Shown: in pieces, positions 1 through 44,884 of the stretch | Position numbering within the stretch: position 1 is the first letter of the stretch | Layout of the letters: each line of letters starts with the position of its first letter | Source of the DNA: Lampris incognitus | Taxonomy: Eukaryota > Chordata > Actinopteri > Lampriformes > Lampridae | Length of the DNA stretch: 64,000 nucleotides | Direction: 5' to 3' | Assembly (NCBI RefSeq): GCF_029633865.1 | Contig: NC_079217.1 | Span: forward strand, 39,955,834 to 40,019,833 | Program-made: the position numbers and the translations under genes | Notes under the pieces: generated by a model | Seen by the model: the letters and a program-made list of their open reading frames with translations, nothing else | Told to the model about the DNA's origin: nothing | Database searches by the model: none

Positions 1-1
1 C

Positions 2-304
2 GGACTGATCATCAGTCCAGCCAAATGCCAGTTCAGGCTGGCAACCATCGACTTCCTCGGACACTGAGTCACCAAAGACGGGGCAGTACCCCTCCCATCA
101 AAGGTGGATGCCGTCGTGAACTTCCCGCGACCGCTCACAGTCAAGTCCCTACAGGACTTCCTTGGCATGGTGAACTTTTACCACCGCTTTATCCCCAGAG
201 CTGCTCAACTCATGCGACCACTGTATGAAGCCCTGAAAGGCAAGGCCACCAAACACACTGTGGACTGGTCTGCGGAGAGGGACAAGGCGTTTTATGGACG
301 CTAA
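2..304 (+). pseudogene. Ty3/gypsy reverse transcriptase 3' fragment (element A)
   Basis: Reading from base 2 gives the end of a gypsy RT domain. The stretch FLGMVNFYHRFIP at about 155-195 and the following LMRPLYEALKGK are the classic RT/connection motifs. There is an in-frame stop at 65-67 (FLGH then stop) and a frameshift near 293, after which the stretch ALADATMLVH can be read in another frame as the start of the RNase H region. The catalytic YxDD box would lie upstream of the window. It is a dead relic. Confidence 0.85.
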
Positions 305-453
305 TACTGCTCTGGCTGACGCAACAATGCTGGTGCACATCACCCAAGGCTCCGATCGTCATTACCACAAAATGCTTCGGACTACGCAGTCGACGCAGTG
401 CACGAGCAGTGGGTGAACGGCAGTTGGCAGCCGCAAACCACTGACCTTTGCCA

Positions 454-526
454 GTTGTGGAAGTTGGCAACAAGCCAGAGTGCATTTCAATGGATCATCT
501 CAAACTGACTCGCCTGGACTTGGACC
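454..526 (+). pseudogene. Ty3/gypsy integrase C-terminal tail, part 1 (element A)
   Basis: The frame from 454 reads VVEVGNKPECISMDHLK and LTRLDLD, matching the region just after the integrase core in fish gypsy elements, where the tail typically contains a DRLKPAHLDLD-like stretch. The hAT target-site duplication cttggacc at 519-526 ends this segment. The same frame resumes after the hAT at 11590. The fragment is too short to function. Confidence 0.75.
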
Positions 527-1457
527 CATGGACGGATTAATGCACGGGCCGACGGGGCCCGGGCCCCAGGGCCCCGCCCTTCTGGGGGCCCCGGAGATTA
601 GCGAAATTACGTCCTCTGAAATCCGCCCAATGATTACCCCTTCTATAAATAATCATTACAAGAGGTAATGTCGATTACCAGGGTTTATATAAGACATGAT
701 TTCACTAGAATTCTCAATCATGGTGGCAAAATATTTTTTTCCAATTGTATGCCAAAAATATTCCTGTATTATTTCAAATATGGATTCATTAGCACCAATG
801 TACAATTAAATGTTATAGGCTACACATACAAACAAAAACAAAGATCATCAAAAAATTAAAATAAATTGCATCATGGGCCAACAGATTTGCTCTTGACGAT
901 CATTTTTCACGTTCAAGTACGTAGCTACGTCATTGTAGGCTATACAAAAAACAAAAATTGAGAAGAGGCTTTATGCTAGTGGGTTCCTTAAAAGAAAAAC
1001 AAAACAGGAAAAAGTTGAAAGACAGGCGTCTGAGTTGCAAAAGATCCCAAAATTGGATAGTTTTTTTTAAAAAGAAAGAAACTCAAACTCCGGATAAGGA
1101 TGAACAAGAAGCGCTACTACCGCCAAGTGTTAGCAACTGTGATGAAGCTAGCAATGTTAGGCCTACTTGTAGCACACTTGATAAGAATGACACTTACAGG
1201 GGCTGGTGTTTTTGTTGTTTTACTCCATCTGTCAAATAGACATTACAGAGGACACGTTTTCAGAGCATGGCTCACTATACGAAAGGCAACACTCATCTGA
1301 CGATTCTACCCGAATGCCCCAGAGTACACCGAGAGAGCCAGCACTACGTCACACAGGCTAGAAGCAATTAACCTGCAGTGCCCTCCTGTGGCGAGAACCG
1401 GTTATCACAACAACACAGCAGACAATTCTCCTCTTTACTAGTACTGAGTTGTCAATG

Positions 1458-1516
1458 AAGGTAAGTATATGAAATAGAAGGTAAGTATATAAAATAGAAG
1501 GTAAGTATATAAAATA
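1458..1516 (+). repeat. Short tandem repeat, about 20-bp unit x3
   Basis: Three consecutive copies of a unit like gaaggtaagtatataaaata lie in the 5' non-coding part of the hAT element. Each unit contains a splice-donor-like ggtaagta. Confidence 0.8.
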
Positions 1517-2043
1517 AAAAATAGATGGGGGGGCTACTAAATCCCAAGTACCCCACATACTGAAGATGAGCTAACGTTAACAGCAACCGCCATGAATGGA
1601 CAGCAGCAGCATTTGGATAAAAGTGGCTGCTCATCAGCAGGCGAGCTAACTGTCGCCACGTTCGGGGGGGTTACTGCAGCAAGAGCAACCGCCAAGCCCA
1701 ACCGTGGAGAAAAACGGTGATGAGCAGCATGACAACAATCACAAACAATATATCAGCGATCCTGGGGAGTGGGGTGAGAAGATTAGTGAACATTTAATGT
1801 GTTGTTTGCTTCAGAAGGGTCCGACAGCTTGTCAGAATAGAAGCAAGACATATCCTGCATCTGCTCGGGAAATCAATGGAAAGTTAAGATCGCTTTCTAA
1901 TGAACTGTTTTTATGTCGTTTGCCCAACGGGGAAGAGGTGGCTCGTGAATGACTGATTTACTCTCCATCAAATGGATGCGTTTTTTGTTTTGCCTGCAAA
2001 TTATTTCTAACGAAAAAGAATGCGTTTGTTGATGGATTCTGCG

Positions 2044-3130
2044 CAGTGATTAAAGTGGGCCGGAGCTACCCGGATCCCGACACCGGCACTTCCCCTCCTC
2101 CCCCAAGTCAACCGGAGCTGAGATCCGGCACTCTGTAGACAGGAGTAATTTCAACCTTTTTGTCACAGTACAATTTAAAACAAAAAACATGATGCAGCCA
2201 ATTCACAAGCATTACAAAATAAATCGCAAATAAAGTCGTTCTTCTATTTTTATACTACTTTACTTTTTCTAAAAGTTTGAATGATATCGCGTCCTCACGT
2301 GACCCGCACCTGCCTGCTGTCTGGCTTCACCAGACTTGACATCAAAAGAGACTGGCTTCACACTCACGGGTCAGGGTCAGTTCACCGCACCAGGCAGACA
2401 AGACTCGAGATAGCGTCAACCTGCTACCTGCACTATTATCTTGGATTGGGGGGCATAAAGAGTGAGTATCTTCAGTGTATTTCCAATAGTATTTCCAATA
2501 GTTTTGTCTAGCTCTGCTGTGGTTTTCATTCAAGCAACTAACGTTAGCGAACGTAACGTTAGCTAGCTAGCTAACTAGCTATCTTCCACCCGGTAACGTT
2601 GCTAGCTAGTTGCTGACGTTGCTGGCTAGTTGTTTGAATGCTGCTAGGCAAGGTAACTATCGGTAGCGTCCGGTAACGTTACCGGTAGCTAGCTAGTTAT
2701 GTTTGTCCAACCTTAGCTCTGGCCATGCAATATTTTCATTCAAATAACTAACTAGCTAGCAAACGTTAGCTACCGGTAGCTATTATTAGCTTGTTTCAGC
2801 ATTCATTTTTTATTGCTGAAAAACTGGTTTGTTTGATATTATGATTGGAATTGGAACATTAAATGTTGTGATGACTATTAGTAAATTCATGGAGTCTGTT
2901 CAGTGGCACTTTCAACTAATACAAAAGACTGATTAAAATGCATTTCAATTTTTAAATTGAACATGTAGCCAGTGATTTATTGAGCATGTAGTGTGTGTGT
3001 GTGTGCATGTGCTCGTAGGGTTAATTTCCTGATTTGAGACGCAGTATTGAGGCCGACTATCACTCCCGCACTTTTGCCCACCTCTCTAATACAGAGATAC
3101 CCCACTTACCAAATCCCACTTTAACCCCTG
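2044..3130. mobile_element. Non-autonomous hAT-like element inserted in the hAT transposase gene
   Basis: The insert starts cagtgattaaagtggg and ends cccactttaacccctg, so its termini are inverted repeats with two mismatches. It is flanked by a perfect 8-bp duplication attctgcg (2036-2043 and 3131-3138). It interrupts the host transposase within the reading VDGFCDWKHPE. Inside there is no recognisable transposase. The interior has agctagctagct-type repeats (2560-2600, 2690-2780) and a short GT run near 2991. Length is 1087 bp. Confidence 0.85.
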
Positions 3131-4047
3131 ATTCTGCGACTGGAAGCACCCAGAGCGTGTTGGAGAGCACGAGAAAAGCCCGGAATATCAGAACAGTATG
3201 GTGGCTTTAATGTATCGGTCAAGGGGAACTGGGACTGTCGATTCTGCTCTTGTTCAGCAGTTCGAGTCAGAATGTCACTATTGGAAGGAGGTCCTGCGAC
3301 AAGTTGTATCAGTGATTAAATTTCTGGCCGAGCGTGGATTGGCATTTCGCGGCAGAGATGAATTATTGGGCTCTGAACACAACGGTAACTATTTGGGTAT
3401 TCTCGAGCTAATGGCCCAATACGATCAAATTTTAGCCCAGCATATCGAGAAATATGGTCAAAAGGGTAGGGGAAACACCTCTTATCTAAGCTCAACAATT
3501 TGTGAAGAGATTATCGATTTGATGGGGGAAAAATGAGAAGTGTTATAGCTGCAGAACTCCAGCAGGCCAAATATTTTTCCGTAATTGTGGATTCAACGCC
3601 CGATATAACCCATGTTGATCAACTGACCTTTGTTTTTAGATTTGTAAGCCCTGATGGAAAAGTCATTGAACGATTTATAGCATTTGAGCCCATAGAAAAC
3701 CACACCGGCGCAAGCCTCACGGATTGTGTGCTATCAGTGATCGCCGACTTGGGTTTGGAGCTGGAAAATTGTCGTGGGCAATCATATGACAATGCTAGTA
3801 ACATGTCTGGGTGCTACAATGGTTGTCAGGCCCATTTGAGACAACGCAACCCTCTAATTCACTACATCCCTTGCGGTGCCCACTCCCTGAATTTAGTAGG
3901 GGTTAACAGTGTTGAGAACAGCTGCCCAACCGCTAGTAATTTTTTTGGAGTTTTACAGTCACTGTATAATTTCTGTTCCACGTCTACCTACCGTTGGAAC
4001 AAAGTTTTTCATGATGACAGTGACAGCCGCTCCCTAACGCTGAAAAC

Positions 4048-4341
4048 TGTCGTGTATGAAACACTAATACTGTTCTAAACTGTTTAAGTAGATAACTGGA
4101 AAGTGCACACGGCAGACTTATGACAGTAATGTAGTATATTTATTCTTACTCTGTAACAACCTAGCTATCCCGAGTAGAGCGGAGTACCAAGAGAACGCCC
4201 TGGTGGCGAGTCTGCCTTATATACTCTTCAGGAACAACCAATAGCTGACCTCCACCTCATTCAGCACCAATCACATTTGAATGTGCACATTCAAAACCAA
4301 CCAACCCACACTGGTTAATATTCTGTGTTGGGAACACCACA
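4048..4341 (-). repeat. 3' LTR of gypsy B
   Basis: It is the 294-bp direct repeat partner of 9199-9492 and lies downstream of pol on the minus strand. On the + strand it starts TGTCGTGTATG and ends ACACCACA. On the minus strand it would begin TGTGGTG and end ACGACA. Confidence 0.93.
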
Positions 4342-4504
4342 GCTCCTCCCCTGTAAATTCCAACTTCTTTTTTTTCTAGGATTCTAACATATCCTTTTTT
4401 CTCTTAAGCTCATAACCATGTACAGTATTTCTTCAACAGTAACCATACATTACATTACAGATTTCTTTTCTCTTTTTTTTTTCAATAACCAATCTGCATG
4501 TCAG

Positions 4505-6123
4505 TCACAAGTTCAGTCTATCAGGAGGACGTCTGTCTCTCACAGGACGAGTGTTCCTTTCCACAACTGGCAGTGGTGGTTCTACAGGTTGTTCTTCCAC
4601 AACCTGTGGTTCAGGATGTTCTGACACATCAGTGTCTGCATTGAAATCATCAATCTCCCAAGAAGCTCCATCACAAGAGTCCATTTGAGTCTGATGTGGA
4701 TTTCCCTTGACACCCAACATCTGGTTCACATGTCTTTTCACACAATTTCCATTTACTTCAACACCGTATGTGACAGGACCCAACACTTCACTTATAACTC
4801 CATTCAACCATTTCTCCCCTCCCCTGTAATTTTTTACCAACACGTGTTGACCAACCTTAAAAGACCTAACACGGGGAAGTTGGTTCAGACTCGGTCTGCA
4901 TTCTCTGAGAGAACTTTGGTTTGATAAGACACAACCTGATTCGCACCTGTCTTCTCAGAAATAGCTCAGCTGGGGTCTTTCCTGTCTTAGTATGGGGTGT
5001 GTTTCTGTACCCAATCAGAAAATTTGCTACACAGTGCTCAAGCGTCATACCACCAATGGCTCTATTCTTTGCAAGGGATTTCTTAAGATTTTGGACCAAT
5101 CTTTCAGCTAAACCATTACTTGCAGGATGGTATGCAGGTGACTTGATGTGTTTTACTCCATTTTTAGTCAAAAATGACTCAAACTCTTGCGATACGAACT
5201 GAGGTCCGTTATCAGTTACAACCTCTTTAGGCAACCCATAAGCTGCAAATAAATTTCTCATTGCTTCAGTTGTCTTAGATGAAGTATTAGTGGTCATGGG
5301 AACTATCTCTGGCCATCTAGCATAGGCATCCATCACTACTAAAAACATCTGCTTGTGGTCCTCAGCAAAATCAAGATGTAGTCTTTCCCATGGACTCGAA
5401 GACCATTTCCATGTATGTATCGGTGCGGTAGCAGGCATACTACACTGCTGCTGACAAATAGTACACTGATTCACTTCACGTTCAATACTGTCATCTAATG
5501 TAGGCCACCAGAATAAACTTCTGGCGAGGGACTTCATTTTAACTATTCCCCAGTGGTGCTCATGTAATTCCGACAATAGCCTGTCTCTTAGTTTATCAGG
5601 CACTACCACACGGTAACCCCATAATAAACAATCATCCTCAATGCTAAGCTCTAATTTTCTCTGAAAATAAGGTAACCTATTGTAGTGATACAACCCTCTG
5701 TGTGTGTTGATAGTTAGGTATTGTCTTGAATTGTCCTCTAACAGAACAAGCTGATAAGCCTGCGACAAGTCTAATTTGGTAAACTGCTGACCTCCTGCTA
5801 GTTTAGCAAATAAATCTTGGGTTTTGGGTAGTGGATACTGTTCCACATTCAACCATGGATTGATGGTGACCTTGTAGTCTCCACATATTCTCACACTATC
5901 ATCCTTTTTAGGCACACAAACTATTGGAGCTGCCCACTCACTGCAATTAATGGGTGAGATGACACCTTCAGCTTCCAATTTCGCCAGTTCTCTCTCTACG
6001 GCTTCTCTTAATGCATAAGGCACGTTTCTAGGCTTACAGAACTTGGGCACTGCATCTGGAACTACATGTAGGCTGGCTTCAATACCTTTTAACTTGCCTA
6101 ACTCAGGTTTGAACACTGATGTA
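4505..6123 (-). pseudogene. pol of gypsy B: partial reverse transcriptase plus integrase
   Basis: Reading minus from the Tc1 junction at 6123, the RT N-terminal motifs include EWAAPIVCVPKKDDSVRICG and motif A KLDLSQAYQLVLL. The sequence then jumps at YNRLPY directly into FQRKLELSIEDD, so the YxDD box, RNase H and connection are deleted. Integrase follows: a zinc-binding H/H..CTIC region, then core residues in HLDFAED, TDNGPQF and NGLAERL (DDE pattern). A one-base frameshift near 4845-4866 separates the last piece (4505-4843), which ends with RPPDRLNL. It could not reverse transcribe. The pol frame is continuous with gag-protease across the Tc1 insertion. Confidence 0.88.
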
Positions 6124-7704
6124 CACTGCTCAAAAAAAATAAAGGGAACACATAAGCAATGCAATGTAGCTCCAAGTCAATCACACTTTTGAGATATCAA
6201 CCTGTCCAGTTAGGAAGCAACACTGATTTGTGAATCAATTCCACCTGTTGGTAAATTGTCTAATTTCCACCAGGTGGAAATTAGACAATTTGAAAGACAA
6301 CCCCTATAAAAGGAATGGATTTGCAGGTGGTGGCCACAGACCATTTGCCTGTCCTCATCTTTTCTGGCCGATCTTTGGTTAGTTTTTCATTTTGCTAGTG
6401 CCCTCACCACTAGAGGTGGCATGAGGCGGTATCTGCAACCTACAGAAGTTGCTCAGGTAGTGCAGCTCATCCAGGATGGCACATCAATGTGTGCTGTGGC
6501 AAGAAGATTTGATGTGTCTCCCAGCACAGTGTCCAGAGCATGGAGGAGGTACCAGGAGACAGGCCAGTACACCAGGAGACGTGGAGGGGGTCGCAGGAGG
6601 ACAACAACCCTGCAGCAGGACCGCTATTTGGTCCTTTGTGCAAGGAGGAACAGGAGGAGCACTGCCGGAGCCCTACAAAACGACCTTCAACAGGCCACTA
6701 ATGTGCAGGTTTCTACTCAAACAGTGAGAAACAGAATGCATGAGGATGGTATGAGGGCCCGACGTCCACAATTGGGGCCTGTGCTCACAGCCCAACACCG
6801 TGCAGCCCGATTGACCTTTGCCAGAGAACATCTTGGTTGGCAGATTCGCCATTGGCGCCCTGTGCTCTTCACAGATGAGAGCAGGTTCACACTGAACACA
6901 TGTGACAGACGTGAGAGAGTCTGGAGACGCTGTGGAGAACGTTCTGCTGCCTGCAACATCCTCCAGCATGACCGGTTTGGCGGTGGGTCAGTGATGGTCT
7001 GGGGAGGCATATCCTTGGAGGGCCGCACAGACCTCTACGTGCTAGCCAGAGGTACCATGACTGCCATCAGGTACCGGGATGAGATCCTCAGACCCATTGT
7101 CAGACCATGTGCTGGTGCAGTGGGCCCTGGGTTCCTGCTCATGCATGACAATGCTCATCCTCATGTGGCCAGAGTGTGTCAGCAGTTCCTGTATGTCGAG
7201 GGCATTGATGCTATGGACTGGCCTGCATGTTCCCCAGACCTGAATCCAATCGAGCACCTCTGGGACATCATGTCTCGTACCATCCGCCAACGCCATGTCG
7301 CACCACAGACTGTCCAGGAGTTGACCGATGCCCTGATCCAGGTCTGGGAGGAGATCCCTCAGGAGACCATCCGTCGTCTCATCAGGAGCATGCCCAGACA
7401 TTGTAGGGAGTGCATACAGGCACATGGAGGCCACACACACTACTGAGCCTCATTTTGAATCGTCTTGAAGAATTTCCACAGAAGTTGGATCAGCCTATGT
7501 TCTCATTTTCCACTTTGATTTTGAGTATGATTCTGAATCCAGACCTTAATGGGCTAATGATTTTGATTTCCATTGATCATTCTTAGGTTATTTTGCTCTA
7601 AACACATTCCTCTGTCTAATAAATAAAGATTTTCAGCTGAAATATTTCATTCATCGAGGTCTATATTGTGTTTTTAGGTGTTCCCTTTATTTTTTTGAGC
7701 AGTA
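6124..7704 (+). mobile_element. Tc1-like DNA transposon (DD34E), copy 1, inside gypsy B
   Basis: The termini are inverted repeats of about 27 bp: it begins cactgctcaaaaaaaataaa and ends tttatttttttgagcagta. It is flanked by TA at 6122-6123 and 7705-7706. Removing 6124-7706 restores the gypsy B reading frame, which confirms a clean TA-targeted insertion. The 1581-bp element has one intact transposase gene. The same family occurs in inverted orientation at 29398-30958. Confidence 0.95.
6421..7446 (+). CDS. Tc1-like transposase (DD34E), intact 341 aa
   Basis: The ORF begins [10 protein letters not shown]. It has an N-terminal paired-like helix-turn-helix (residues about 1-50, [11 protein letters not shown]), an arginine-rich GRRR linker and a second DNA-binding helix region to about 110. 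The catalytic domain has D152 (TDESRF), D243 (MHDNAHPH) and E278 (NPIEHLWD), with 34 residues between the last two, the DD34E spacing of Tc1. Length matches the family (about 340 aa). It acts in the nucleus, binding the element's inverted repeats and pasting at TA. No stop or frameshift is present, so it may encode a working enzyme, although activity is not shown. Confidence 0.95.
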
Positions 7705-9091
7705 TATGTCTGGCACACACATCATCCACTGTATCATGAGTCACTCTGTTGACTCTTGACCAGTCTAGCTTTAATTGACTTATCCAGTCTCTGCCCATTA
7801 ATGCAGGACCTCTTCCTTTCACGACTAGTAGTTCTAGCTTTTCTGAGCATTCCTTGCATTTCACCTTTGCTGCGAATTTTCCTATCAACGGCAATGATTC
7901 CTCACTGTAGGTTTTCAGCACACAATTTGCAGGACTAAGTTTCACATCTTTAAACCTGCGTTTAAGTAGAGTTTCAGATATCACTGACACGGCTGCGCCA
8001 GTGTCTACCTCCATTTTCACCCTTGTACCATTTACACTAACATACACATAGTAGGGTTTCACAATGTCACCTTTACCCGTGTCCATTGCAAAATGTTCGG
8101 CCCCTCCGCTGTCCAATGTCTGACCAGTGTCAATGTTCTGTACAGCATCCACCATGCACCTTGTCGGCACACAGCAGTCGTCTCTGGCACTGCAGGGCTG
8201 AGGCTGTATAGGATCTCCATCTGCTCGAAGACTGTGAGCATTGTTCTGGTCCACGTGCTGGAGAGCGTGGCAACATTCCAAATGCCTGGTCCCTTTCGAT
8301 GCCTTGCCATAGCTTCCTTCTTTAGGTGAACGGCATGCTTTTGCGATGTGTCCCTTTTTCTTGCACTGGTGACACTCTGCGTCCTTGAACCTGCATTCAT
8401 CCGGTCTGTGGCCTTTTCCATTGCAGCAATAGCAGTGCTTTCCATTAGCTGTAGACTTTACCGTAGCCTCTCTATGCTTTAGGTTAGCCTTCTTTTCTAC
8501 CACATTAGCTTTATAGCCTTTCTGTGCAAACTGTTGCGCACTGTTGCCTTTTGTTTCCTCAAAAGAAAGCGCCATTTCAACTGCGAGCTGTAACGTTACA
8601 TCTTTTGTGTGAGCAGCATTGAGTAACCGATCGCTTAGCTCACTGCTCTTAACTCCACAGACAAACCTATCACACAGTGCTTCATCTAAAAATGTTCCAA
8701 ATTTGCATGTGGCTGCTAACTTTCTCAAACTTGCAATGTACTCACTTATTGTTTCGTTTTCCTTCTGGTTTCTTCCGTGAAACTTGCATCTCTCGGCAAT
8801 AAAGTTGGTTTTCGGGATGTAGTGCTTTTCTAGCAGTCCCACCAGTACTTCATATGTTTTACCCGATGGCTTATCTGGTGCACACAAATCCATCAGCAAG
8901 CTATGTGCCCGTTTTCCTACCACCGTAAGAAACACCGCTTTGGTTTTCTCATCTCGAATGTCCAATCCATTTGCTGCGAAGTACTGCTCTAACCACTGGC
9001 GATAACTATCAAAACTTTCCTCATTTTCCTCGAAGCGGAAATCTTCTGGCTTACCGAATGCCATTTTCTGTTCGATGGTCCTTTCCCTCAC
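7705..9091 (-). pseudogene. gag-protease of gypsy B
   Basis: A minus-strand ORF starts at 9091. Its N-terminal half is a retrotransposon gag domain (SYRQWLEQYFAANG through FEETKGN). Two CX2CX4HX4C zinc knuckles follow (CYCCNGKGHRPDEC and CHQCKKKGHIAKAC). An aspartic protease segment with VDTGAAVSVISE comes next. It runs open into the Tc1 terminal repeat at 7704, where a foreign tail adds a stop at 7661. Gag would package element RNA. The gag-pol frame is single, without frameshift, which is common in some gypsy lineages. It is scored as a pseudogene because the Tc1 insertion truncates it. Confidence 0.88.
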
Positions 9092-9198
9092 CGAACATCT
9101 CTCTCTGGTTGTTCGTCGTTTACTTCTGCCTCGCTGGAGCTGCTTGACATACTAACTCTGTGACTTCCAACTTAAACATCCCATCCTCGTCGCCAAAC

Positions 9199-9492
9199 TG
9201 TTGTGTATGAAACACTAATACTGTTCTAAACTGTTTAAGTAGATAACTGGAAAGTGCACACGGCAGACTTATGACAGTAACGTAGTATATTTATTCTTAC
9301 GCTGTAACAACCTAGCTATCCCGAGTAGAGCAGAGTACCAAGAGAACGCCCTGGTGGCGAGTCTGCCTTATGTACTCTTCAGGAACAACCAATAGCTGAC
9401 CTCCACCTTATTCAGCACCAATCACATTTGAATGTGCACATTCAAAACAAACCAACCCACACTGGTTAATATTCTGTGTTGGGAAATCCACA
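9199..9492 (-). repeat. 5' LTR of gypsy B
   Basis: It is the 294-bp partner of 4048-4341, upstream of gag on the minus strand. Its last bases differ by two substitutions from the other LTR (aaatccaca versus aacaccaca). The adjacent sequence gtttggcgacgagg (minus) is the candidate primer-binding region. Confidence 0.93.
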
Positions 9493-10499
9493 AAAACATT
9501 ATCGGATACTAGGTGGAGCTGTCGAGCCGATTCAACGGAAGCACTTTGCCAGAGTTATGTCCCGATCAGAGAAGCCTCGATGGCGTTATCTGAGGATGCG
9601 AATCAATCAGCTGATACTCGAAGGGAGGCTGCTTCATTGCACGGTAAACTGGGCGAACTTGACACTGTTTTTATGGCTAAATTTTGGAACACTGTTTTGC
9701 AACAATTTAAAATGACAAGTGTTCAATTGCAAAAGAATGACATTGACTTAAAGACAGCAGTCGGATTACTGGACTCTTTGAGAAATTTTGTAGCTTCGCT
9801 GCGAGATCAGTTTGAAGACTTTGAAAGATCTGCCACAAGCGTCAACGGTGTTTCTAAACAGTACCAGCATGAACTGCATCGCAAAAGGAAGCCGAAGGTG
9901 TTTTCTGATGACTCGAGCGAACCTGCAGCATCACTGGAAGGAAGCCAGAAGTTCAGAGTCGAAACTTTTAATGTTATCACTGATCGATTACTGACTTGTC
10001 TGGATCACCGACTGCAGGCCTATATGCAGGTGAACAATCTTTTTGGGGTGTTGTTCGAAAAGAACCCTGCTGATTTGAGTGACGCTCGCAAGCGAGCCAT
10101 GGAATTGGCTGCTGCTTATCCAAATGACTTGGAAAAAAGATTTGGCCGACGAACTTTTACAGTTCGTTTTTTTTTTAGAAAGATGAGCCTGGTCAACAAT
10201 CCCCCACACAACTGCTGCAGATGTTGATCAAACATGGGCTCAACTCGACCTTCCCAAACGTTTTTATCACACTGAAACTGTTCCTGACTTTACCCGTCAC
10301 GAATTGTGAAGGTGAATGTTCCTTTTCGCAATTAGCACGTATAAAAAACAAACTAAGATCAAAAGTGAGCCAAAAGAGGCTGAAAGCATTGTCAGTTATG
10401 GCTATCGAATCAGACCTATTGAGATCCATGGATTTTAACGATGTCGTCGAGGACTTTTCCAGGAAAAAGTCAAGGAGGAAGACTGCCTGAGACAAGGAG

Positions 10500-11567
10500 A
10501 TAATGCTTAAAGCCTGGTAAGACCACGGGGGTTTCTTACTTAATGCTGTGTCTGCTGATTTGGCGTTTGGAGATGTAACTTAAAGGCCGGCTCAGGCAGG
10601 CTAGGTAACCATCTTCGTCGTGAGACGATAATTGGGTTGTCTATCAGTCCTATATCGTGTTATCTTGTGCGCTTGTGTTTGCCGCAGTTATGGGCACTAT
10701 TCGTTGCTGTTGTATCACGAAAAATCACTGTCACATCATGATTGGCTTGCTGATAACTTTATTTACTTTATTATTCACGCGTTTTCCAATATTGATACCA
10801 AAGCGTGTATTCCGATTCTTTTCGGTGCTTGTATAAATTGTTGGCACATGTGAGGTGTGTAAAATGCTTTTTATAATCTTGTAACCTTACTGGTTATGCT
10901 AAGTTAATTAATTCCTACTCAATATGGGTGCAGCCATATTTAATGTTTATGTCAGTAGCCTATACTGTAGTTTGTTACACGGCTTTGTTGAATACTCGAT
11001 TCTGATTGGTCAATTATGACATTCAGCGGTGTGTCATTTCTTGATAGACACCGCTGCTAGGTATAACAGACCGTTGCTATGCGTAGAACGTAGAAATCTA
11101 ACGTAATCTGGATGAATGGAAGCAATAGCCTACAATAATTTTTAAATCAATAAAAACATTTTTTGTTATAGTTTGTGGCAAATTATTGATTTATTTAGTA
11201 AGTGGCCGTGTAACAAGCGGGATAATGTACAGCAAGCTGGTTATTATTTCGTAATAATAACCGGCTTGCTGTACATTATCCTTTACATATTCAATGCATT
11301 CTGGGAGGTAACGTTAACGTGACGTTTGCGCGCCTTAGCAGTTAGTGCTGGTGACGGGTGAAATAATAATAACAACAACAATAATAATAATAATAATAAT
11401 GTAATGTTTTGTAGGTCCTTTAATAATATCACATACGTTGCATTGTTTCCGGTGATTACTGTAAGTCACATGACTAATCAAAACTGCTTGGTGAAATTGC
11501 ATTCAGACTCTCTGGTGTTGTTATAGGGGGGCCTCGTGAATTATTGTGCCCCGGGCCCCAGATTGGT
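10500..11567. other. 3' non-coding part of the hAT element
   Basis: No gene is seen. It holds a 28-bp-arm hairpin (11221-11280), an AAT/AAC microsatellite (about 11368-11400) and the motif tactcgattctgattgg near 10993, which recurs near 48188. These suggest another small repeat lies inside, but I could not define its ends. Confidence 0.5.
11221..11280. repeat. Near-perfect hairpin, 28-bp arms
   Basis: The left arm gataatgtacagcaagc... at 11221-11248 pairs with 11253-11280 with a single mismatch and a 4-base loop (tcgt). It is in the 3' non-coding part of the hAT, close to a motif shared with 48.2 kb. Confidence 0.85.
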
Positions 11568-11581
11568 TTAATCCGTCCCTG

Positions 11582-11797
11582 CTTGGACCGACCTGTTAGC
11601 CTGTCCCAGCCTCCATGGCGGGGGCACCCTCCTACCCTGCCCCCACCCCCCAACAAGGCCCCTAAGGTTCCTCCATCCCACCCTGCACCCCCACACTGCC
11701 GCAGGGTCCCCAAGGCCCCTCCTGTGGGCACCCTGGCCTCCGCACCTGTTCGGCGAAGCAATTGCAGCCAGGCCATTCGCCCCCCTCTACGTTGACC
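11582..11797 (+). pseudogene. Ty3/gypsy polyprotein C-terminal tail, part 2 (element A)
   Basis: After the hAT target duplication the gypsy A frame resumes: RPVSLSQPPWRGHPPTLPP, a proline/arginine-rich tail ending at the stop near 11795. It joins in frame to 454-526 when the hAT and one 8-bp duplication are removed. Such basic, proline-rich tails are usual at the end of fish gypsy pol. Confidence 0.75.
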
Positions 11798-11829
11798 TTT
11801 TCTATTATGGTGAATTCTGTGGGGACGTA

Positions 11830-12057
11830 TGTAGCGGACTCTATGGACATAATTCATCATAATCAGTTCTGTGTTAGGTAGACACGGTCGCCTTAAGAGA
11901 GTGTTTCCGGGTTGACAGGGTGGAGCTACGACGATGGTTGTTGGGGCAGCGCCATGTTGCTTTTGCTGTTGGTTGGTACAAAAAAAAAAAATGACACGCA
12001 CGTTCGTGTAGACAATGAGAGAAATTGTCCGTCTCTTAATTTCCTGCAATTTCTACA
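11830..12057 (+). repeat. Candidate 3' LTR of gypsy A
   Basis: It starts TGTAGCGGAC right after a ggggac purine run and ends TTTCTACA, so TGTAG/CTACA form the short inverted termini expected of an LTR. Length is about 228 bp. The partner LTR lies left of the window, so this cannot be confirmed by comparison. Confidence 0.6.
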
Positions 12058-16802: not shown

Positions 16803-17777
16803 GACACATGGGTCAAAATCCAAACACAAGAGGTGCAAGCGTTCACCAAACACATCAACTCAGTGGACAAGAACATTAAGTTCACAAGAGAAGACGTAAA
16901 GAACAACAGTTTGCCCTTCTTGGACTGTGACGTCCACATTGGGGAAGACAGGAGCCTCCACATTGGGGTTTACAGGAAACCTACACACACAGACCAATAT
17001 CTACTTTTCGACTCACACCACCTTCTGGAACACAAACTGAGCGTCATCAGAACTCTGTAACACAGAGCTGACAATGTGCCCAGCAGCACTCAGGCCCAAC
17101 GAGAAGAACACAAACACCTGAAAGGAGCTTTAAAAACCTGCGGCTACCCCAGTTGGACCTTTGTGAAAACTGCAACACGTTCCAAAAAGACCAACCAGGT
17201 GAGCGACGAGGAGAAAAGGAACAGAAGGAATAATATAGTCATCCCATATGTTTCTGGGGTCTCCGAGAAACTCAGGAGGATTTTCAACAAACACCGCATC
17301 CCGGTATACTTCAAACCCAGCAACACACTCCGACAAAGACTGGTTCATCCCAAACACCATGTACCACACACCCGGAAAAGCAATCTGGTGTATGCTGTAC
17401 AATGCAATGAGGATTGCACTGACCTATACATAGGAGAAACCAAACAACCACTACACAAACGGATGGCCCAACACAGAAGGCCAAACTCCTCAGGACAAGA
17501 CTCAGCAGTCTATCTACACCTAAAGAAAACACACTCCTTCGAGGACAGCAATGTACACATTTTAGACAGGGGAGATAGATGGTTTGAAAGAGGGGTGAAG
17601 GAAGCCATCTATGCGAAACTGGAAAAACCATCCCTCAACAGAGGAGGAGGTCTGCGACACCACCTATCTCCCACTTACAATGCCGTCCTTTCATCTCTAC
17701 CCAGGAGACTCAAGAAGCCTAACCTCCAAGAACAACAGTCGGTCGCTAACGGCTCCAACGACTCTCATGACCACTGA
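16803..17777 (+). pseudogene. Penelope-like RT C-terminus plus GIY-YIG endonuclease
   Basis: One frame from about 16803 to 17777 carries the RT thumb region (NSLPFLDCDVHIG, GVYRKPTHTDQYLLFDS), then a linker with basic residues. The GIY-YIG domain follows (LVYAVQCNEDCTDLYIGETK, KRMAQHRR, then E in WFERGVKEAIYAKLEKPSLN). A single in-frame stop (taa, 17058-17060) sits where the RT meets the linker. Penelope-like elements use this endonuclease for target-primed insertion. The copy lacks the RT palm, so it is inactive. Confidence 0.88.
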
Positions 17778-28860: not shown

Positions 28861-31800
28861 ATAGTCACTGTGGTGTTCTACATCTTCACAGATATGATCC
28901 TCATCTCTCAATTTCTCTACTATAAGATCAAGAACAGTTCCACCAGAAGTAAGCCATGACATTCTAGCTATGCGTTCAGTTGGCCATGTATTCATGACTG
29001 TCTAGATGGGTATAGTGTATAACAGTTAGGATTATGAGCTAAACTGAGTTTTTTTTCTGCTGTTTAGTCATCATGAATGTGTGCTCTCGAATGGTTTCCT
29101 CACAGTTGTACATATATAAGAACACAAATTTAGTATAAAGAAAGGTCAGTAAGTACCCATATTGACCCTTTGCACGTGACGTCACGTCCCACTCGCGGGG
29201 AATATGAACGCCATGACGGACTGCAGAAGACTTGCGCGTCAAATTTAAGACAAGCAGGCACGTTAGCTATAGTTCGACATTTCATTGTTTGAAGCTAGTT
29301 TTTATTTTACTTTTATGGTACGAGGGTGATTTCCTGCTGTGCCGTGCAATGTGCCAACAGGCAAGGACTGAACCTGAACTGACTAAATATATATATATAC
29401 TGCTCAAAAAAATAAAGGGAACACCTAAAAACACAATATAGACCTCGATGAATGAAATATTTCAGCTGAAAATCTTTATTTATTAGACAGAGGAATGTGT
29501 TTAGAGCAAAATAACCTAAGAATGATCAATGGAAATCAAAATTATTAGCCCATTAAGGTCTGGATTCAGAATCATACTCAAAATCAAAGTGGAAAATGAG
29601 AACATAGGCTGATCCAACTTCTGTGGAAATTCTTCAAGACGATTCAAAATGAGGCTCAGGAGTGTGTGTGGCCTACACATGCCTGTATTTACTCCCGACA
29701 ACGTCTGGGCATGCTCCTGATGAGACGACGGATGGTCTCCTGAGGGATCTCCTCCCAGACCTGGATCAGGGCATCGGTCAACTCCTGGACAGTCTGTGGT
29801 GGGACATCGCGTTGGCGGATGGTACGAGACATGATGTCCCAGAGGTGCTCGATTGGATTCAGGTCTGGGGAACGTGCAGGCCAGTCCATAGCATCAATGC
29901 CCTCGACATACAGGAACTGCTGACACACTCTGGCCACATGAGGACGAGCATTGTCATGCATGAGCAGGAACCCAGGGCCCACTGCACCAGCATATGGTCT
30001 GACAATGGGTCTGAGGATCTCATCCCGGTACCTAATGGCAGTCATGGTACCTCTGGCTAGCACGTAGAGGTCTGTGTGGCCCTCCAAGGATATGCCTCCC
30101 CAGACCATCACTGATCCACCGCCAAACCGGTCATGCTGGAGGATGTTGCAGGCAGCAGAACGTTCTCCACAGCGTCTCCAGACTCTCTCACGTCTGTCAC
30201 ATGTGTTCAGTGTGAACCTGCTCTCATCTGTGAAGAGCACAGGGCGCCAATGGCGAATCTGCCAACCAAGATGTTCTCTGGCAAAGGTCAATCGGGCTGC
30301 ACGGTGTTGGGCTGTGAGCACAGGCCCCAATTGTGGACGTCGGGCCCTCATACCATCCTCATGTATTCTGTTTCTCACTGTTTGAGCAGAAACCTGCACA
30401 TTAGTGGCCTGTTGAAGGTTGTTTTGTAGGGCTCCGGCAGTGCTCCTCCTGTTCCTCCTTGCACAAAGGACCAGATAGCGGTCCTCCTGCGGCCCCCTCC
30501 ACGTCTCCTGGTGTACTGGCCTGTCTCCTGGTACCTCCTCCATGCTCTGGACACTGTGCTGGGAGACACATCAAATCTTCTTGCCACAGCACGCATTGAT
30601 GTGCCATCCTGGATGAGCTGCACTACCTGAGCAACTTCTGTAGGTTGCAGATACCGCCTCATGCCACCTGTAGTGGTGAGGGCACTAGCAAAATGAAAAA
30701 CTAACCAAAGATCGGCCAGAAAAGATGAGGACAGGCAAATGGTCTGTGGCCACCACCTGCAAATCCATTCCTTTTATAGGGGTTGTCTTGCAAATTGTCT
30801 AATTGCCACCTGGTGGAAATTAGACAATTTACCAACAGGTGAAATTGATTCACAAATCAGTGTTGCTTCCTAACTGGACAGGTTGATATCTCAAAAGTGT
30901 GATTGACTTGGAGCTACATTGCATTGCTTATGTGTTCCCTTTATTTTTTTGAGCAGTGTATATATAATTATATATATATATATACACTACCGTTCAAAAG
31001 TTTGGGATCACCCAAACAATTTTGTGTTTTCCATGAAAAGTCACACTTATTCACCACCATATGTTGTGAAATGAATAGAAAATAGAGTCAAGACATTGAC
31101 AAGGTTAGAAATAATGATTTGTATTTGAAATAAGATTTTTTTTACATCAAACTTTGCTTTCGTCAAAGAATCCTCCATTTGCAGCAATTACAGCATTGCA
31201 GACCTTTGGCATTCTAGCTGTTAATTTGTTGAGGTAATCTGGAGAAATTGCACCCCACGCTTCCAGAAGCAGCTCCCACAAGTTGGATTGGTTGGATGGG
31301 CACTTCTTGTGTACCATACGGTCAAGCTGCTCCCACAACAGCTCAATGGGGTTCAGATCTGGTGACTGCGCTGGCCACTCCATTACCGATAGAATACCAG
31401 CTGCCTGCTTCTGCTCTAAATAGTTCTTGCACAATTTGGAGGTGTGTTTAGGGTCATTGTCCTGTTGTAGGATGAAATTGGCTCCAATCAAGCGCTGTCC
31501 ACTGGGTATGGCATGGCGTTGCAAAATGGAGTGATAGCCTTCCTTATTCAGAATCCCTTTTACCCTGTACAAATCTCCCACCTTACCAGCACCAAAGCAA
31601 CCCCAGACCATCACATTACCTCCACCATGCTTAACAGATGGCGTCAGGCATTCTTCCAGCATCTTTTCATTTGTTCTGCGTCTCACAAACGTTCTTCTTT
31701 GTGATCCAAACACCTCAAACTTGGATTCATCCGTCCACAACACTTTTTTCCAGTCTTCCTCTGTCCAATGTCTGTGTTCTTTTGCCCATCTTAATCTTTT

Positions 31801-34800
31801 TCTTTTATTGGTCAGTCTCAGATATGGCTTTTTCTTTGCCACTCTGCCCTGAAGCCCAGAATCCCGCAGCCGCCTCTTCACTGTAGATGTTGACACTGGT
31901 GTTTTGCGGGTACTATTTAATGAAGATGCCAGTTGGGGACCTGTGAGGCGTCTGTTTCTCAAACTAGAGACTCTAATGTACTTATCTTCTTGCTCAGTTG
32001 TGCAACGCGGCCTCCCACTTCTTTTTCTACTCTGGTTAGAGCCTGTTTGTGCTGTCCTCTGAAGGGAGTAGTACACACCGGTGTAGGAAATCTTCAATTT
32101 CTTAGCAATTTCTCGCATGGAATAGCCTTCATTTCTAAGAACAAGAATAGACTGTCGAGTTTCAGATGAAAGTTCTCTTTTTCTGGCCATTTTGAGCATT
32201 TAATTGACCCCACAAATGTGATGCTCCAGAAACTCAATCTGCTCAAAGGAAGGTCAGTTTTGTAGCTTCTGTACCGAGCTAAACTGTTTTCAGATGTGTG
32301 AACATGATTGCACAAGGGTTTTCTAATCCTCAATTAGCCTTCTGAGCCAATGAGCAAACACATTGTACCATTAGAACACTGGAGTGATAGTTGCTTGAAA
32401 TGGGCCTCTATACACCTATGTAGATATTGCACCAAAAACCAGACATTTGCAGCTAGAATAGTCATTTACCACATTAGCAATGTATAGAGTGTATTTCTTT
32501 AAAGTTAAGACTAGTTTAAAGTTATCTTCATTGAAAAGTACAGTGCTTTTCCTTCAAAAATATGGACATTTCAATGTGATCCCAAACTTTTGAACGGTAG
32601 TGTATATTAACCAAACATTATGCATTTTTAATTTAATTAACACATTTCATATGAAGAGGGAAGTATTTTTGCTCATAAGAACAATAAAAGTCTGAGATTT
32701 ATGTGATATTTTTTAAGTGTTACCTTACATGAATGTGAGAAATGGTCAGAGTGGACATGAGAAAATGATTGCAATCTAACAAAAACAGCCAAAAATGTAC
32801 AAATTGTATATTTATTATTTAATTGTATTTTGCTTCATGCTAACCAGTACACTTGAATCAATGGCTTCAGACACTGAAAACATTACTGACAGTTTTATTA
32901 TGCCTCCTTGTCCCCTTTGAATGTTGTGGACTCAAACTTAACGCTTTCTATGGAATGACCCAAATGCTAGCTAGATGGCAAGACTGTCTAGCCTACTATG
33001 AAATGGCAAGGAAATTATGAGCTGCTTTTGGTTACAGTCGATTTGAGTTTTGATGGCATCTTAGGGGAAACAGGTTAAAAACATACACAGCTGGCTAGCT
33101 ATGTCTTACCTTTGCCATTATGAGGTACAGCCCCCTGCTGTGAGCGTAGCACCGCGATTCTGTAACCCAACCAGCTACAAAGAACTGGTAAGCATCCAGA
33201 CTTTTGTATGCTTTTAGTCCGCACCTGTGTATGGGGACACTCCGTTGGTAACATAGTGGTACAGATCGTGTGGATTGAACTCGGGCAGACTGGACGATTT
33301 TGCTAGATCCGTGAACACATCGGTAGGAAGATGGTACGGGTCAGTAGCTAACCCTGCTATCGCTAGCTTCTCCACATTTCGCTCTTTGTGCCGTCCTACA
33401 AGGTGACTCACTTCACAGGACAACTCCACAACATTACTCTGACTATTGGTAGCCATCACTTAAATTTAAACTATAATAGCTACTCATCCGTCGCAATATT
33501 TTGTTTGTTTTTGTTGTTCGCTTTTGAATTTCCCGGTCTATCACTTACTGCCGTCCGTCATGGCGCAGTCTCCCTCGTCACGTGATAATTGTGACGCGTC
33601 TGCAAAGGGTGAATAGAAAGGTCAGTAAGTACCCATCTTGATTACCACAAGAGTCAACATAGAAATGAGCTTGACTTTTGATAAAGCACGTGTCCTGATT
33701 CCTAATGAACACATGCAGCATTTCTACCCAGCATTGAATAAAATGCTCCCAATGAAGATTCAGGACTTATGTGTTTGTGTCGTCATAGTCTAATGTTTTT
33801 AAAGCCGCTTGAGTTGCCAACCCTGTCATGTTGCTTAGCAGCATTTGCAAAATTCCATAAATTCCAAGCATACTAATTTAACATGGCTGGTGAGTTCAGA
33901 TGACTGTTACTTCTCCAGCCGTATCTCCCTAGGGCTGTATCTCACAAGGATAGAGGTCATGAAATTTATTACACAAAGTGAGGTTCCCATCCCAACCATT
34001 CGACCACACGCGCAAACCTCTGCAGTTATCTCTGTAAGTATTACCTTATAGGTGTGACTGCACCTTTTCAAAGCCAAAGATATCAGATCAACACCATGCT
34101 GGGCCTGCTAGTTCAAGATCTAGGTCAGAGAACAAACAAGGAGCACATCCACTTATACTCCGTGCTGATCTTGATTAGACATTATCACACAACTTGAGCT
34201 GACAAGCTCAAGTTTCAAGCTTATTTCAACATGAAAAGATCTCTTATCTTATGTAAGATAACTTCCCACCCTCACATCTAAACAAACGGATGACTCTGTC
34301 TCCACCCTTTGCCTCTTAGACCCCCAATCCCCATACATGCACTTGCACAGAAACACACACACGACACTGCAGTGTATAGATGTTGGGTCACCTAGCCAAA
34401 AGGACATATTGTGATAGGACATATTTGTGATATTGCGCTATACTGGGGTGGCTAACCATGTGCCATGGAGAGCCATGTGTGTGCAGGTTTTCATTCCAGC
34501 CGGACTCCACACGAGATGATTTCACTGATTAGCAACCCTTCAATCAAAGAGGAAGAATGTATCAGTGAAATCACCTGGTGTGGAGTCGGGTTGGAATGAA
34601 AACCTGCATACACATGCCTCTCCATGGCACATGGTTAGCAATCGCTGGGCTATACAAATAAAATTGACTTGAATTATTGCTTTGCATACCATAACCCAAC
34701 CACACTAGCATCAAAGACAAAAGTAATTGGAATTATGGGCATCCGGGTAGCATAGTGGTCTATTCTGTTGCCTACCAACACGGGGATTGCCCTTCGAATC

Positions 34801-42675: not shown

Positions 42676-44884
42676 TGTAACTCTCTAGTCAGCCCGGGTA
42701 GCTTGTCCGAGTTAGCAAGAGTAACTAAGGGGGCGGTACTTAGCGATAGGGCCATTGTAAAGATCACTGCAGTATTCCGCTCATCTCTTTGCAATGCTTT
42801 TTTGTCTGAGATCAGTTCTCCATTTGCGTTGTTAACAGCATATGCCTTTACGTTTTGTTCTGTAGTTAATTTCTTCACTGTTTGGAATGTTTTGAAAGCC
42901 ATTTTAGTGTTGCTGTGCCTCAAGTTGTTATCAATACTTAGACATTCTTGTTCAATCCATTCCTCCTTATCTTTCTTCATCGCAGCTTTCACTTCTCTGT
43001 TACATTTTCTGTATTCCTCCTTGCATTCTTCAGAGCTGTACTTCAGAACCTTGGCTTCATGTTTTCTGTCGCATAGCTTCAATGTTCTATATTGAATCCA
43101 TTAATGTTTCTTGGATTTCTTTTTACCTAGTATTTCTAGCGCAGCTTTGTTCACTTCTTCCAAGAACTTTTCGGTCACTTCTTCAACATTGTCTATGTTC
43201 CAGAAAGCAGCAACACATCCTCCAATTCTGGCTTGGAATTTGTCTCTAACATTTGCATCTTTTAGTTTTTCAAAGTCATATTTGATTCTACCATTCTTTT
43301 CTCTTTTCTGCTTTTTCAGCTTTATGTTGACGGTCATCACCAAACCGTGGTCGCTTCCTATATCAGCTCCAGGAAATGATCTTGTTTTATTTCTTATAAT
43401 GCTTGATTGAAACCTTTACGACATTAGTATGTGGTCTATTTGGCTATGGTTTATGCTGTCTGGTGAGTGCCATGTAGTTTTCTGCGAGTTCTTGTGAGGG
43501 TGGAGCATGTTTCCCAGAACCAGTTGTTGTTTGTGCGCAAACTCTAGTAGTCTGAGACCTCTCTCGTTAGTTTCTCCCACACCAAATTTCCCAACGTTTC
43601 CTCTCCAGTTCGCGTGCCCCTTAGGAATATCTTTATTTGTTTTTTCTTTGATGCAATTTTCAATTTCTTCATAGAATTCTTCGACCCCCTCATTGGTGTG
43701 ATCTGTCATAGGTGCATAAACTTGGATAATAGTGATGAGGCAAGGTTGAACTTTTAGTCTCAGAGTGATGATACCTGAGATTGGTGAGCATTCTAGTACT
43801 GAATTGACTGTGTCTTTCCGCACCACAAATCCAACACCTCGGACATGTTTGAGACTGTTACCACTGTGCCAGACCTTATGACCTTTGTCAGTGACATTCT
43901 CTCCCATGTCATTCCATCTCATCTCTGTGATGCCTAATACATTCCAATTGTACCTTTCCATTTCGTGGCAGAGTTCTTGTCATTTTCCAGGTGTGTTCAA
44001 TGTTCTTACATTCCAGGTCCCTGTGATGAACTCAGATTTCTATAGCTTTAGATTTGTAGTTTGCTTTTTTCTTCCTCAGTAAAATATTTTTCGACTTCAC
44101 CCTAAGGAAGGTTGGTGAAGGATGCGGCCATTGTTAACCCGGGCCTCAACCGATCCGGTATGGTGATTGAGTTTGATTGAGTCATCATTGTGTTTCAGTA
44201 GGGGGAGTACCTGGTGGTCCCTATTTCCTCTCCAGGTATGAATGGCCGTTGGTTCACAGAGGAACTTTAGTCCTGCTGGGTGTCCACACACCCTCCTCAC
44301 AACAACCCAAGGGTTAAAGTGGGGGTGTCGATTTAGTTGCCAATGACCTGACGGTTGCAGTTTAATGTCATACCCAGGACTCCTATACAATAGGATGGGT
44401 TAAATGCAGAGAACAAATTCATTGTAACTGAACAACTGTACAATGACAAAATAACGTGGCTTTCTTCTACTTTCTTCTAATAGCTTACATGGTAGGTAAG
44501 CAAAAACCTTCATAAAACACAACTTTAAGTTAATCAATGATCTCTTAGAATAATTCCAGTTAACATATGAAATGCATCATGAAAACTGTGTGTGCATACT
44601 TGTAATAAAGCAGGCTAAGAAGGAGCCATAGACCAGGGTGATCAAGCTAACAAAGGGTTTGTTGTCTAGAGCACAGTCATTATTAACAGCCTTCCTTGTA
44701 TCCAGCATTGTAAATCAGTCAGCCAAGGAAATGTAACATTATTTTGGTTTTGACTTTATTCATGGGGAAGGGAAAGAGAGTTAAATGCATTTATAATTTT
44801 ATTCTGTCTAAAGAGACAAAAAGCTATTTTTGAATTGCTTCAAAATCCACGAAACCACATGTATTTAAGTCTCTCAATGTAACA

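What the first reader, a model, noticed from the sequence alone, without database searches (positions are those of the whole stretch)
1..12057. Multi-level nest: gypsy A > hAT > (hAT-like MITE, gypsy B) > Tc1
Insertions can be peeled off one by one because each keeps its own target duplication: 8 bp (cttggacc) for the hAT, 8 bp (attctgcg) for the MITE, 5 bp (aaaac) for gypsy B and TA for the Tc1. Host reading frames rejoin at the hAT, gypsy B and Tc1 breakpoints. The order of events is therefore fixed: gypsy A first, hAT second, MITE and gypsy B later, Tc1 last. The Tc1 ORF is intact while every host is broken.
Basis: seen in the sequence. Interest (0 to 1): 0.72.

Follow-up and report, generated by a model that had tools for sequence, protein, structure and literature searches.

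The report
Nest of six transposable elements
Six mobile DNA elements sit inside one another, four layers deep; related copies elsewhere in the same genome show the landing sites still empty, so the nest is real, but this kind of nesting is ordinary.

Summary
The nest is real. In the window's own genome (G000, 1.48 Gb) relatives of each host lack the insert. hAT in gypsy A: 7 of 7 sites read (5 keep exactly CTTGGACC). MITE in hAT: 20 of 20 informative matches. Gypsy B in hAT: 19 of 19. Tc1 in gypsy B: 29 of 29.

Nesting fixes gypsy A > hAT > gypsy B > Tc1. "Tc1 last" is not shown: it is not nested with the MITE or solo LTR, and private changes do not separate Tc1 (6/1581) from MITE (6/1087), p=0.57. 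hAT (38/3034) and gypsy B (17/1452) do not differ either.

Extras: the TA used by Tc1 is CA in 28 of 29 gypsy B relatives, so a base change most likely made the target first. This gypsy B lacks about 1071 bp of pol present in relatives. Tc1 looks recent: 27 best-scoring copies differ from it at 8-20 of 1581 sites.

Verdict: ordinary nesting, unusually well resolved; a new instance of a known kind.

The parts
1..526 (+). gypsy A, left part: pol (RT end / RNase H start), cut off by the window edge; about 1.37 kb missing after 434 relative to relative L097
   Evidence: 39 relatives at 87-90%, most matching to about 432-435 (40 of 1505 candidates scored); nearest solved relatives are Ty3 RT/RNase H, E 1.4e-09 and 5.4e-09; L097 alignment
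519..526 (.). hAT target duplication CTTGGACC, left copy
   Evidence: single copy at 7 of 7 relatives read, exact in 5
527..11581 (+). hAT element together with its own inserts (11055 bp); ends CATGGACGGATTAA / CAGGGACGGATTAA
   Evidence: DUF4371 and Dimer_Tnp_hAT in colinear pieces; 24 matches at 94-97%
   Evidence: absent in 16 of 16 informative hAT matches; five same-strand pairs 6.9-7.3 kb apart in the genome
2044..3130 (.). hAT-type non-autonomous element (1087 bp); duplication ATTCTGCG 2036-2043 / 3131-3138
   Evidence: absent in 20 of 20 informative hAT matches
4048..9492 (-). gypsy B with its Tc1 insert (5445 bp); LTRs 4048-4341 and 9199-9492; duplication AAAAC 4043-4047 / 9493-9497
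   Evidence: LTRs 285 of 294 identical, K2P 0.031; absent in 19 of 19 informative hAT matches
5667..5668 (.). point in gypsy B where relatives hold about 1071 bp more of pol (between RT and the integrase zinc-binding region)
   Evidence: exactly 1071 in 12 of 28 measurable relatives, range 1022-1074; 5-bp microhomology in 26 of 28
6124..7704 (+). Tc1 element (1581 bp); TA 6122-6123 / 7705-7706
   Evidence: absent in 29 of 29 gypsy B relatives read, site CA in 28 and TA in 1
6421..7446 (+). Tc1 transposase, 341 codons and stop, open; D152, D243, E278 (34 residues between the last two)
11582..11589 (.). hAT target duplication CTTGGACC, right copy
11582..12057 (+). gypsy A, right part: end of pol and putative 3' LTR (about 11830-12057, read by eye, boundary not tested)
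   Evidence: 39 relatives at 80-86% (40 of 965 candidates scored); the LTR part has no match in L097

Best explanation
Six transposable elements landed one after another in the same stretch. A Ty3/gypsy-type element (A) came first. A hAT element inserted near the end of its pol gene, duplicating 8 bp. The hAT then took three separate hits: an LTR element that later shrank to a solo LTR (4-bp duplication), a 1.1-kb hAT-type non-autonomous element (8-bp duplication), and a second gypsy element (B, 5-bp duplication) inside the transposase gene. In gypsy B, or in the copy it came from, a C-to-T change made a TA, and a young Tc1 element inserted there. Shown: insert boundaries, empty sites, nesting order along gypsy A > hAT > gypsy B > Tc1, and the CA/TA difference. 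Inferred: the enzymes at work, the recombination that left the solo LTR, and the timing of MITE, solo LTR and Tc1 against one another.
For: Exact target duplications and element ends. Empty sites: hAT 7 of 7 read; solo LTR 16 of 16, MITE 20 of 20, gypsy B 19 of 19 informative among 24 hAT matches; Tc1 29 of 29 (28 of 28 measurable by rule). Colinear domains on each side of breaks. Codon phase carries across the breaks. Pairs of the solo-LTR sequence elsewhere. Private changes: gypsy B above Tc1, p=0.02; hAT above Tc1, p=0.004, uncorrected for six tests.
Against: hAT and gypsy B do not differ in private changes (p=0.89), MITE does not differ clearly from hAT (p=0.06), gypsy B (p=0.14) or Tc1 (p=0.57). 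Gypsy A's own ends were not verified, and Pfam gave no gypsy family for its two pieces; its name rests on the Ty3 match and on weak integrase matches in L097. In two of the five solo-LTR pairs the members differ in identity to the window copy (97% and 91%). All relatives come from one assembly and are mostly the best-scoring candidates, which favours similar copies.
Confidence: 0.96

Rival explanations
1. The pieces are unrelated fragments brought together by rearrangement or misassembly, with chance short repeats at the edges.
For: AAAAC and TA are common (267 AAAAC in the window), and only one assembly was seen.
Against: The flanks of each insert are adjacent at other loci with one copy of the target; the two 8-mers occur only twice in 64 kb.
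Confidence: 0.02
2. The nest formed elsewhere and was copied here by segmental duplication.
For: Two hAT relatives on C5 (L068, L069) look identical to each other in the pieces compared, so such duplications may exist in this genome.
Against: No second place matched gypsy B piece 5400-6123 over its full length (40 of 452 candidates scored), and the next best hAT match is 97% (36 of 36 scored).
Confidence: 0.02
3. Same nest, but the MITE or the solo LTR, not Tc1, was the last event.
For: Private rates of MITE (0.0055, 95% 0.0020-0.0120) and Tc1 (0.0038, 95% 0.0014-0.0083) overlap; nesting is silent; the solo LTR was not dated.
Against: The point estimate is slightly lower for Tc1.
Confidence: 0.35

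Closest known systems
Nested repeat clusters as resolved by REANNOTATE (Pereira 2008, PMC2672092; abstract, section 30 and passages seen)
   Same: Order of insertion read from nesting, LTR divergence as a clock; its Table 3 gives 48% of repeats on human chromosome 2 as inserted in another repeat.
   Different: Here empty sites were read in relatives within the same genome rather than inferred from a repeat library.
Tc1-like DTSsa02 of Atlantic salmon (de Boer 2007, PMC2198921; passages seen)
   Same: Table entry: TA target, CACT end, ~40-bp inverted repeats, ~1600 bp. Here: TA, CACT at the left end (TACT at the right), short inverted repeats, 1581 bp.
   Different: Features compared only; no sequences compared. 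DTSsa01 (CAGT, 200-bp repeats), to which the lamprey elements of Kuraku 2012 (PMC3516227; abstract and first part of Results seen) are close, differs in these features.
hAT transposons with DUF4371 and Dimer_Tnp_hAT domains (Pfam names)
   Same: Both domains in colinear pieces, 8-bp duplication, short inverted ends.
   Different: Transposase frame of this copy is broken by stops and shifts besides the inserts.

Membership tests
hAT superfamily (527-11581) | 8-bp target duplication and short terminal inverted repeats | tested here: met
   empty sites
hAT superfamily (527-11581) | hAT transposase with C-terminal dimerisation region | tested here: met
   Dimer_Tnp_hAT 1.4e-08 and DUF4371 1.5e-15, both above cut-off; DUF4371 N-terminal part 1.5e-04, below cut-off
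Tc1/mariner (6124-7704) | TA target duplication | tested here: met
Tc1/mariner (6124-7704) | DDE transposase of Tc1 type | tested here: met
   HTH_Tnp_Tc3_2 2e-23, DDE_3 7.4e-16; D152, D243, E278 lie in the conserved stretches aligned to Sleeping Beauty
Ty3/gypsy, gypsy B (4048-9492) | LTR pair with TG...CA ends and a short (4-6 bp) duplication | tested here: met
Ty3/gypsy, gypsy B (4048-9492) | gag, then protease, RT, RNase H, integrase in that order | tested here: inconclusive
   integrase core 2.5e-16 and zinc-binding domain 1.4e-14 above cut-off; gag, protease and RT start only below cut-off (1.5e-04, 1.1e-05, 0.011); the stretch that should hold RNase H is missing from this copy and was not searched in relatives
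Ty3/gypsy, gypsy A | Ty3-type RT | tested here: met
   68-301 closest to Ty3 RT/RNase H, E 1.4e-09 and 5.4e-09; Pfam gave no RT family
Ty3/gypsy, gypsy A | LTR pair with target duplication | not tested
Solo LTR (1168-1557) | the same sequence flanks full elements elsewhere | tested here: inconclusive
   five same-strand pairs 6.9-7.3 kb apart, in three of them both members 92-93% identical to the window copy, in two 97% and 91%; the interiors were not read
hAT-type MITE (2044-3130) | inverted ends, 8-bp duplication, no transposase frame, many copies | tested here: met
   24 other full-length matches among 40 of 460 candidates scored; no frame of 80 codons or more within it; its parent element was not sought

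The most novel reading that the evidence does not exclude
The locus is a preferred landing zone (for instance a silenced or piRNA-producing stretch where insertions are tolerated), so the depth of nesting reflects local selection or targeting rather than chance in a repeat-rich genome.
Probability: 0.05. Interest if true: 0.45.

Novelty: new member of a known kind. Interest (0 to 1): 0.15.

Why it matters
It gives a cleanly ordered record of element activity at one locus, checked at each insertion by empty sites. It includes one small, neat point: a base change most likely had to create the TA before Tc1 could land. It does not change what is known about transposable elements.

Tried and rejected
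A scan of viral contigs for the Tc1 protein found no relative. Other copies of nest parts within the rest of the window: only one further Tc1 copy at E <= 1e-3. DTSsa01 / Kuraku Group 1 as the Tc1's family: set aside on end sequence and repeat length from the de Boer table, without comparing sequences. 'Tc1 last' as a proven point: rejected. A gypsy B subfamily sharing the pol deletion: none among the 40 scored of 452 candidates matches across the point. Descent of the TA from the one TA-bearing relative (L031): L031 is among the least similar to the window copy in the RT piece (97.6%), so this is not favoured, but the source copy was not identified. An earlier count said at least 26 full-length MITE copies; the recount is 24 others (one more reaches 1068 of 1087). 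Passages of PMC7599744 were also seen and not used.
Full report
What was checked. The window lies at G000:C10:39955834-40019833 of a 1.48-Gb genome. All four inserts of the finding were located to the base, with target duplications CTTGGACC (hAT), ATTCTGCG (MITE), AAAAC (gypsy B) and TA (Tc1). Both 8-mers occur only twice in the 64 kb, both strands counted.

Empty sites. The strongest test is whether relatives of each host elsewhere in the genome have the flanks side by side. For Tc1 in gypsy B, 40 of 452 candidates were scored, giving 39 other places; 29 were fetched, and all 29 have exactly two bases where the window has TA-Tc1-TA (by an automatic rule 28 of 28 measurable). For the hAT, all 36 candidates were scored: the window copy, 24 matches at 94-97% and 11 distant ones at 64-69%. 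The 24 are at most 22 copies, since two pairs of partial matches (L075/L083, L076/L081) look like one copy each, split by another insert. Of the 24, 20 were informative for the MITE and all 20 lack it; 19 were informative for gypsy B and all 19 lack it (site AAAAC in 17, AAAAT in one, AAGAC in one). L068 and L069 look like duplicates of each other and both count. For the hAT in gypsy A, 7 relatives were read at the site (L097 and 6 of the 39 other places). All 7 are uninterrupted; CTTGGACC is exact in 5, 7 of 8 bases in one, 6 of 8 in one. The flanks match at 22-25 of 30 bases upstream and 15-18 of 22 downstream.

A missed insertion. The hAT relatives lack window 1168-1557. The stretch starts TGT, ends ACA and is flanked by TACT on both sides; 16 of 16 informative relatives of the 24 have one TACT. 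In the genome 40 of 743 candidates were scored; among them are five same-strand pairs 6.9-7.3 kb apart, on C2, C3, C6, C9 and C14. In the C3, C6 and C9 pairs both members are 92-93% identical to the window copy; in the C2 and C14 pairs one is 97% and the other 91%, which is less like two LTRs of one element. A solo LTR is the simplest reading; the interiors were not read. The nest thus has six elements and four levels: gypsy A > hAT > (solo LTR, MITE, gypsy B > Tc1).

Reading frames. Codon phase carries across the hAT, MITE, gypsy B and Tc1 breaks. By the same arithmetic on the frames it also carries across the solo LTR (codon start 1165 on the left corresponds to 1559 on the right). Protein domains are colinear: DUF4371 in two adjoining pieces (1.5e-04, below cut-off, and 1.5e-15) and Dimer_Tnp_hAT beyond gypsy B (1.4e-08). 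In gypsy B, gag and protease (weak, below cut-off) lie on one side of Tc1, and a weak RT start, the integrase zinc-binding domain and the integrase core on the other. Gypsy A's pieces gave no gypsy family in Pfam. The left piece is nearest to Ty3 RT/RNase H among solved structures (1.4e-09 and 5.4e-09), and its relative L097 carries weak integrase matches downstream (3e-05 and 1.5e-04, both below cut-off).

Hosts are broken, Tc1 is not. The hAT frame has stops and shifts. Gypsy B lacks a stretch of pol at 5667/5668: relatives hold about 1071 bp there (exactly 1071, a multiple of three, in 12 of 28 measurable, range 1022-1074; 5-bp microhomology in 26 of 28). None of the 39 other places matches across the point. 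Gypsy A lacks about 1.37 kb after 434 relative to L097; a 19-base match (E 0.002) within it suggests two losses. The Tc1 frame of 341 codons is open, with D152, D243 and E278 in the stretches aligned to Sleeping Beauty. Of 27 other Tc1 copies compared, 20 keep a stop-to-stop frame of at least 377 codons, and they differ from the window copy at 8-20 sites. They were taken from the 40 scored of 492 candidates, so these figures are biased toward similar copies.

Order and age. Nesting fixes gypsy A, then hAT, then gypsy B, then Tc1, and puts MITE and solo LTR after hAT. Divergence was compared by one rule with 8 relatives each: private changes hAT 38/3034, gypsy B 17/1452, MITE 6/1087, Tc1 6/1581. 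Uncorrected p for the six comparisons: hAT-Tc1 0.004, gypsy B-Tc1 0.02, hAT-MITE 0.06, gypsy B-MITE 0.14, MITE-Tc1 0.57, hAT-gypsy B 0.89. With up to 15 relatives (MITE still 8) the picture is the same. Gypsy B's LTRs differ at 9 of 294 sites. Gypsy A's relatives are far more distant: 87-90% on the left and 80-86% on the right. The divergence data agree with nesting but cannot say that Tc1 was last. The solo LTR was not dated.

A target made by mutation. At the Tc1 site 28 of 29 gypsy B relatives read CA and only L031 reads TA. Tc1 elements need TA (established knowledge; TA also borders all 27 other copies). So a C-to-T change most likely came before the insertion, in this copy or in its source.

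Verdict. Nesting of this sort is common; on human chromosome 2, 48% of repeats lie within another repeat (PMC2672092, section 30). Nothing here departs from known kinds of elements or known ways of nesting.

Noticed in passing
window 29398-30958 (-): A second copy of the nest's Tc1, 27 differences over 1561 aligned bases, longest frame 293 codons.
   Followed up: partly
window 31147-32199 (-): A different Tc1-like transposase with an open 350-codon frame, 32% identical to the nest's Tc1.
   Followed up: partly
window 17061-17777 (+): Open frame with a GIY-YIG match below cut-off, perhaps from a Penelope-like element (recalled).
   Followed up: no
window 43416-43979 (-): Weak match to an endonuclease of LINE-like elements (Exo_endo_phos_2, below cut-off).
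   Followed up: no
window 11220-11281: 29-bp inverted repeat, 97% complementary with 4 bases between the arms, in the 3' part of the hAT.
   Followed up: no
L075/L083 (G000 C10 ~31.09-31.10 Mb) and L076/L081 (G000 C13 ~39.105-39.109 Mb): Two other hAT copies appear split within the transposase stretch by inserts of about 4.5 and 3.3 kb, with 6 and 3 overlapping query bases at the breaks: more nests in the same family.
   Followed up: no
L068 and L069 (G000 C5, about 140 kb apart): Two hAT relatives that look identical in the pieces compared, perhaps a segmental duplication.
   Followed up: no
G000 C14 51-54 Mb and C21 39.7-40.2 Mb: Matches to the solo-LTR sequence are crowded there; some C21 copies carry extra tandem repeats of the first 62 bp.
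   Followed up: no
gypsy B relatives, at the place of window 8241-8274: 14 of 29 fetched relatives carry an extra stretch with a repeat of 21-34 bp that the window copy lacks (overlapping pieces), so the family may have two forms.
   Followed up: no
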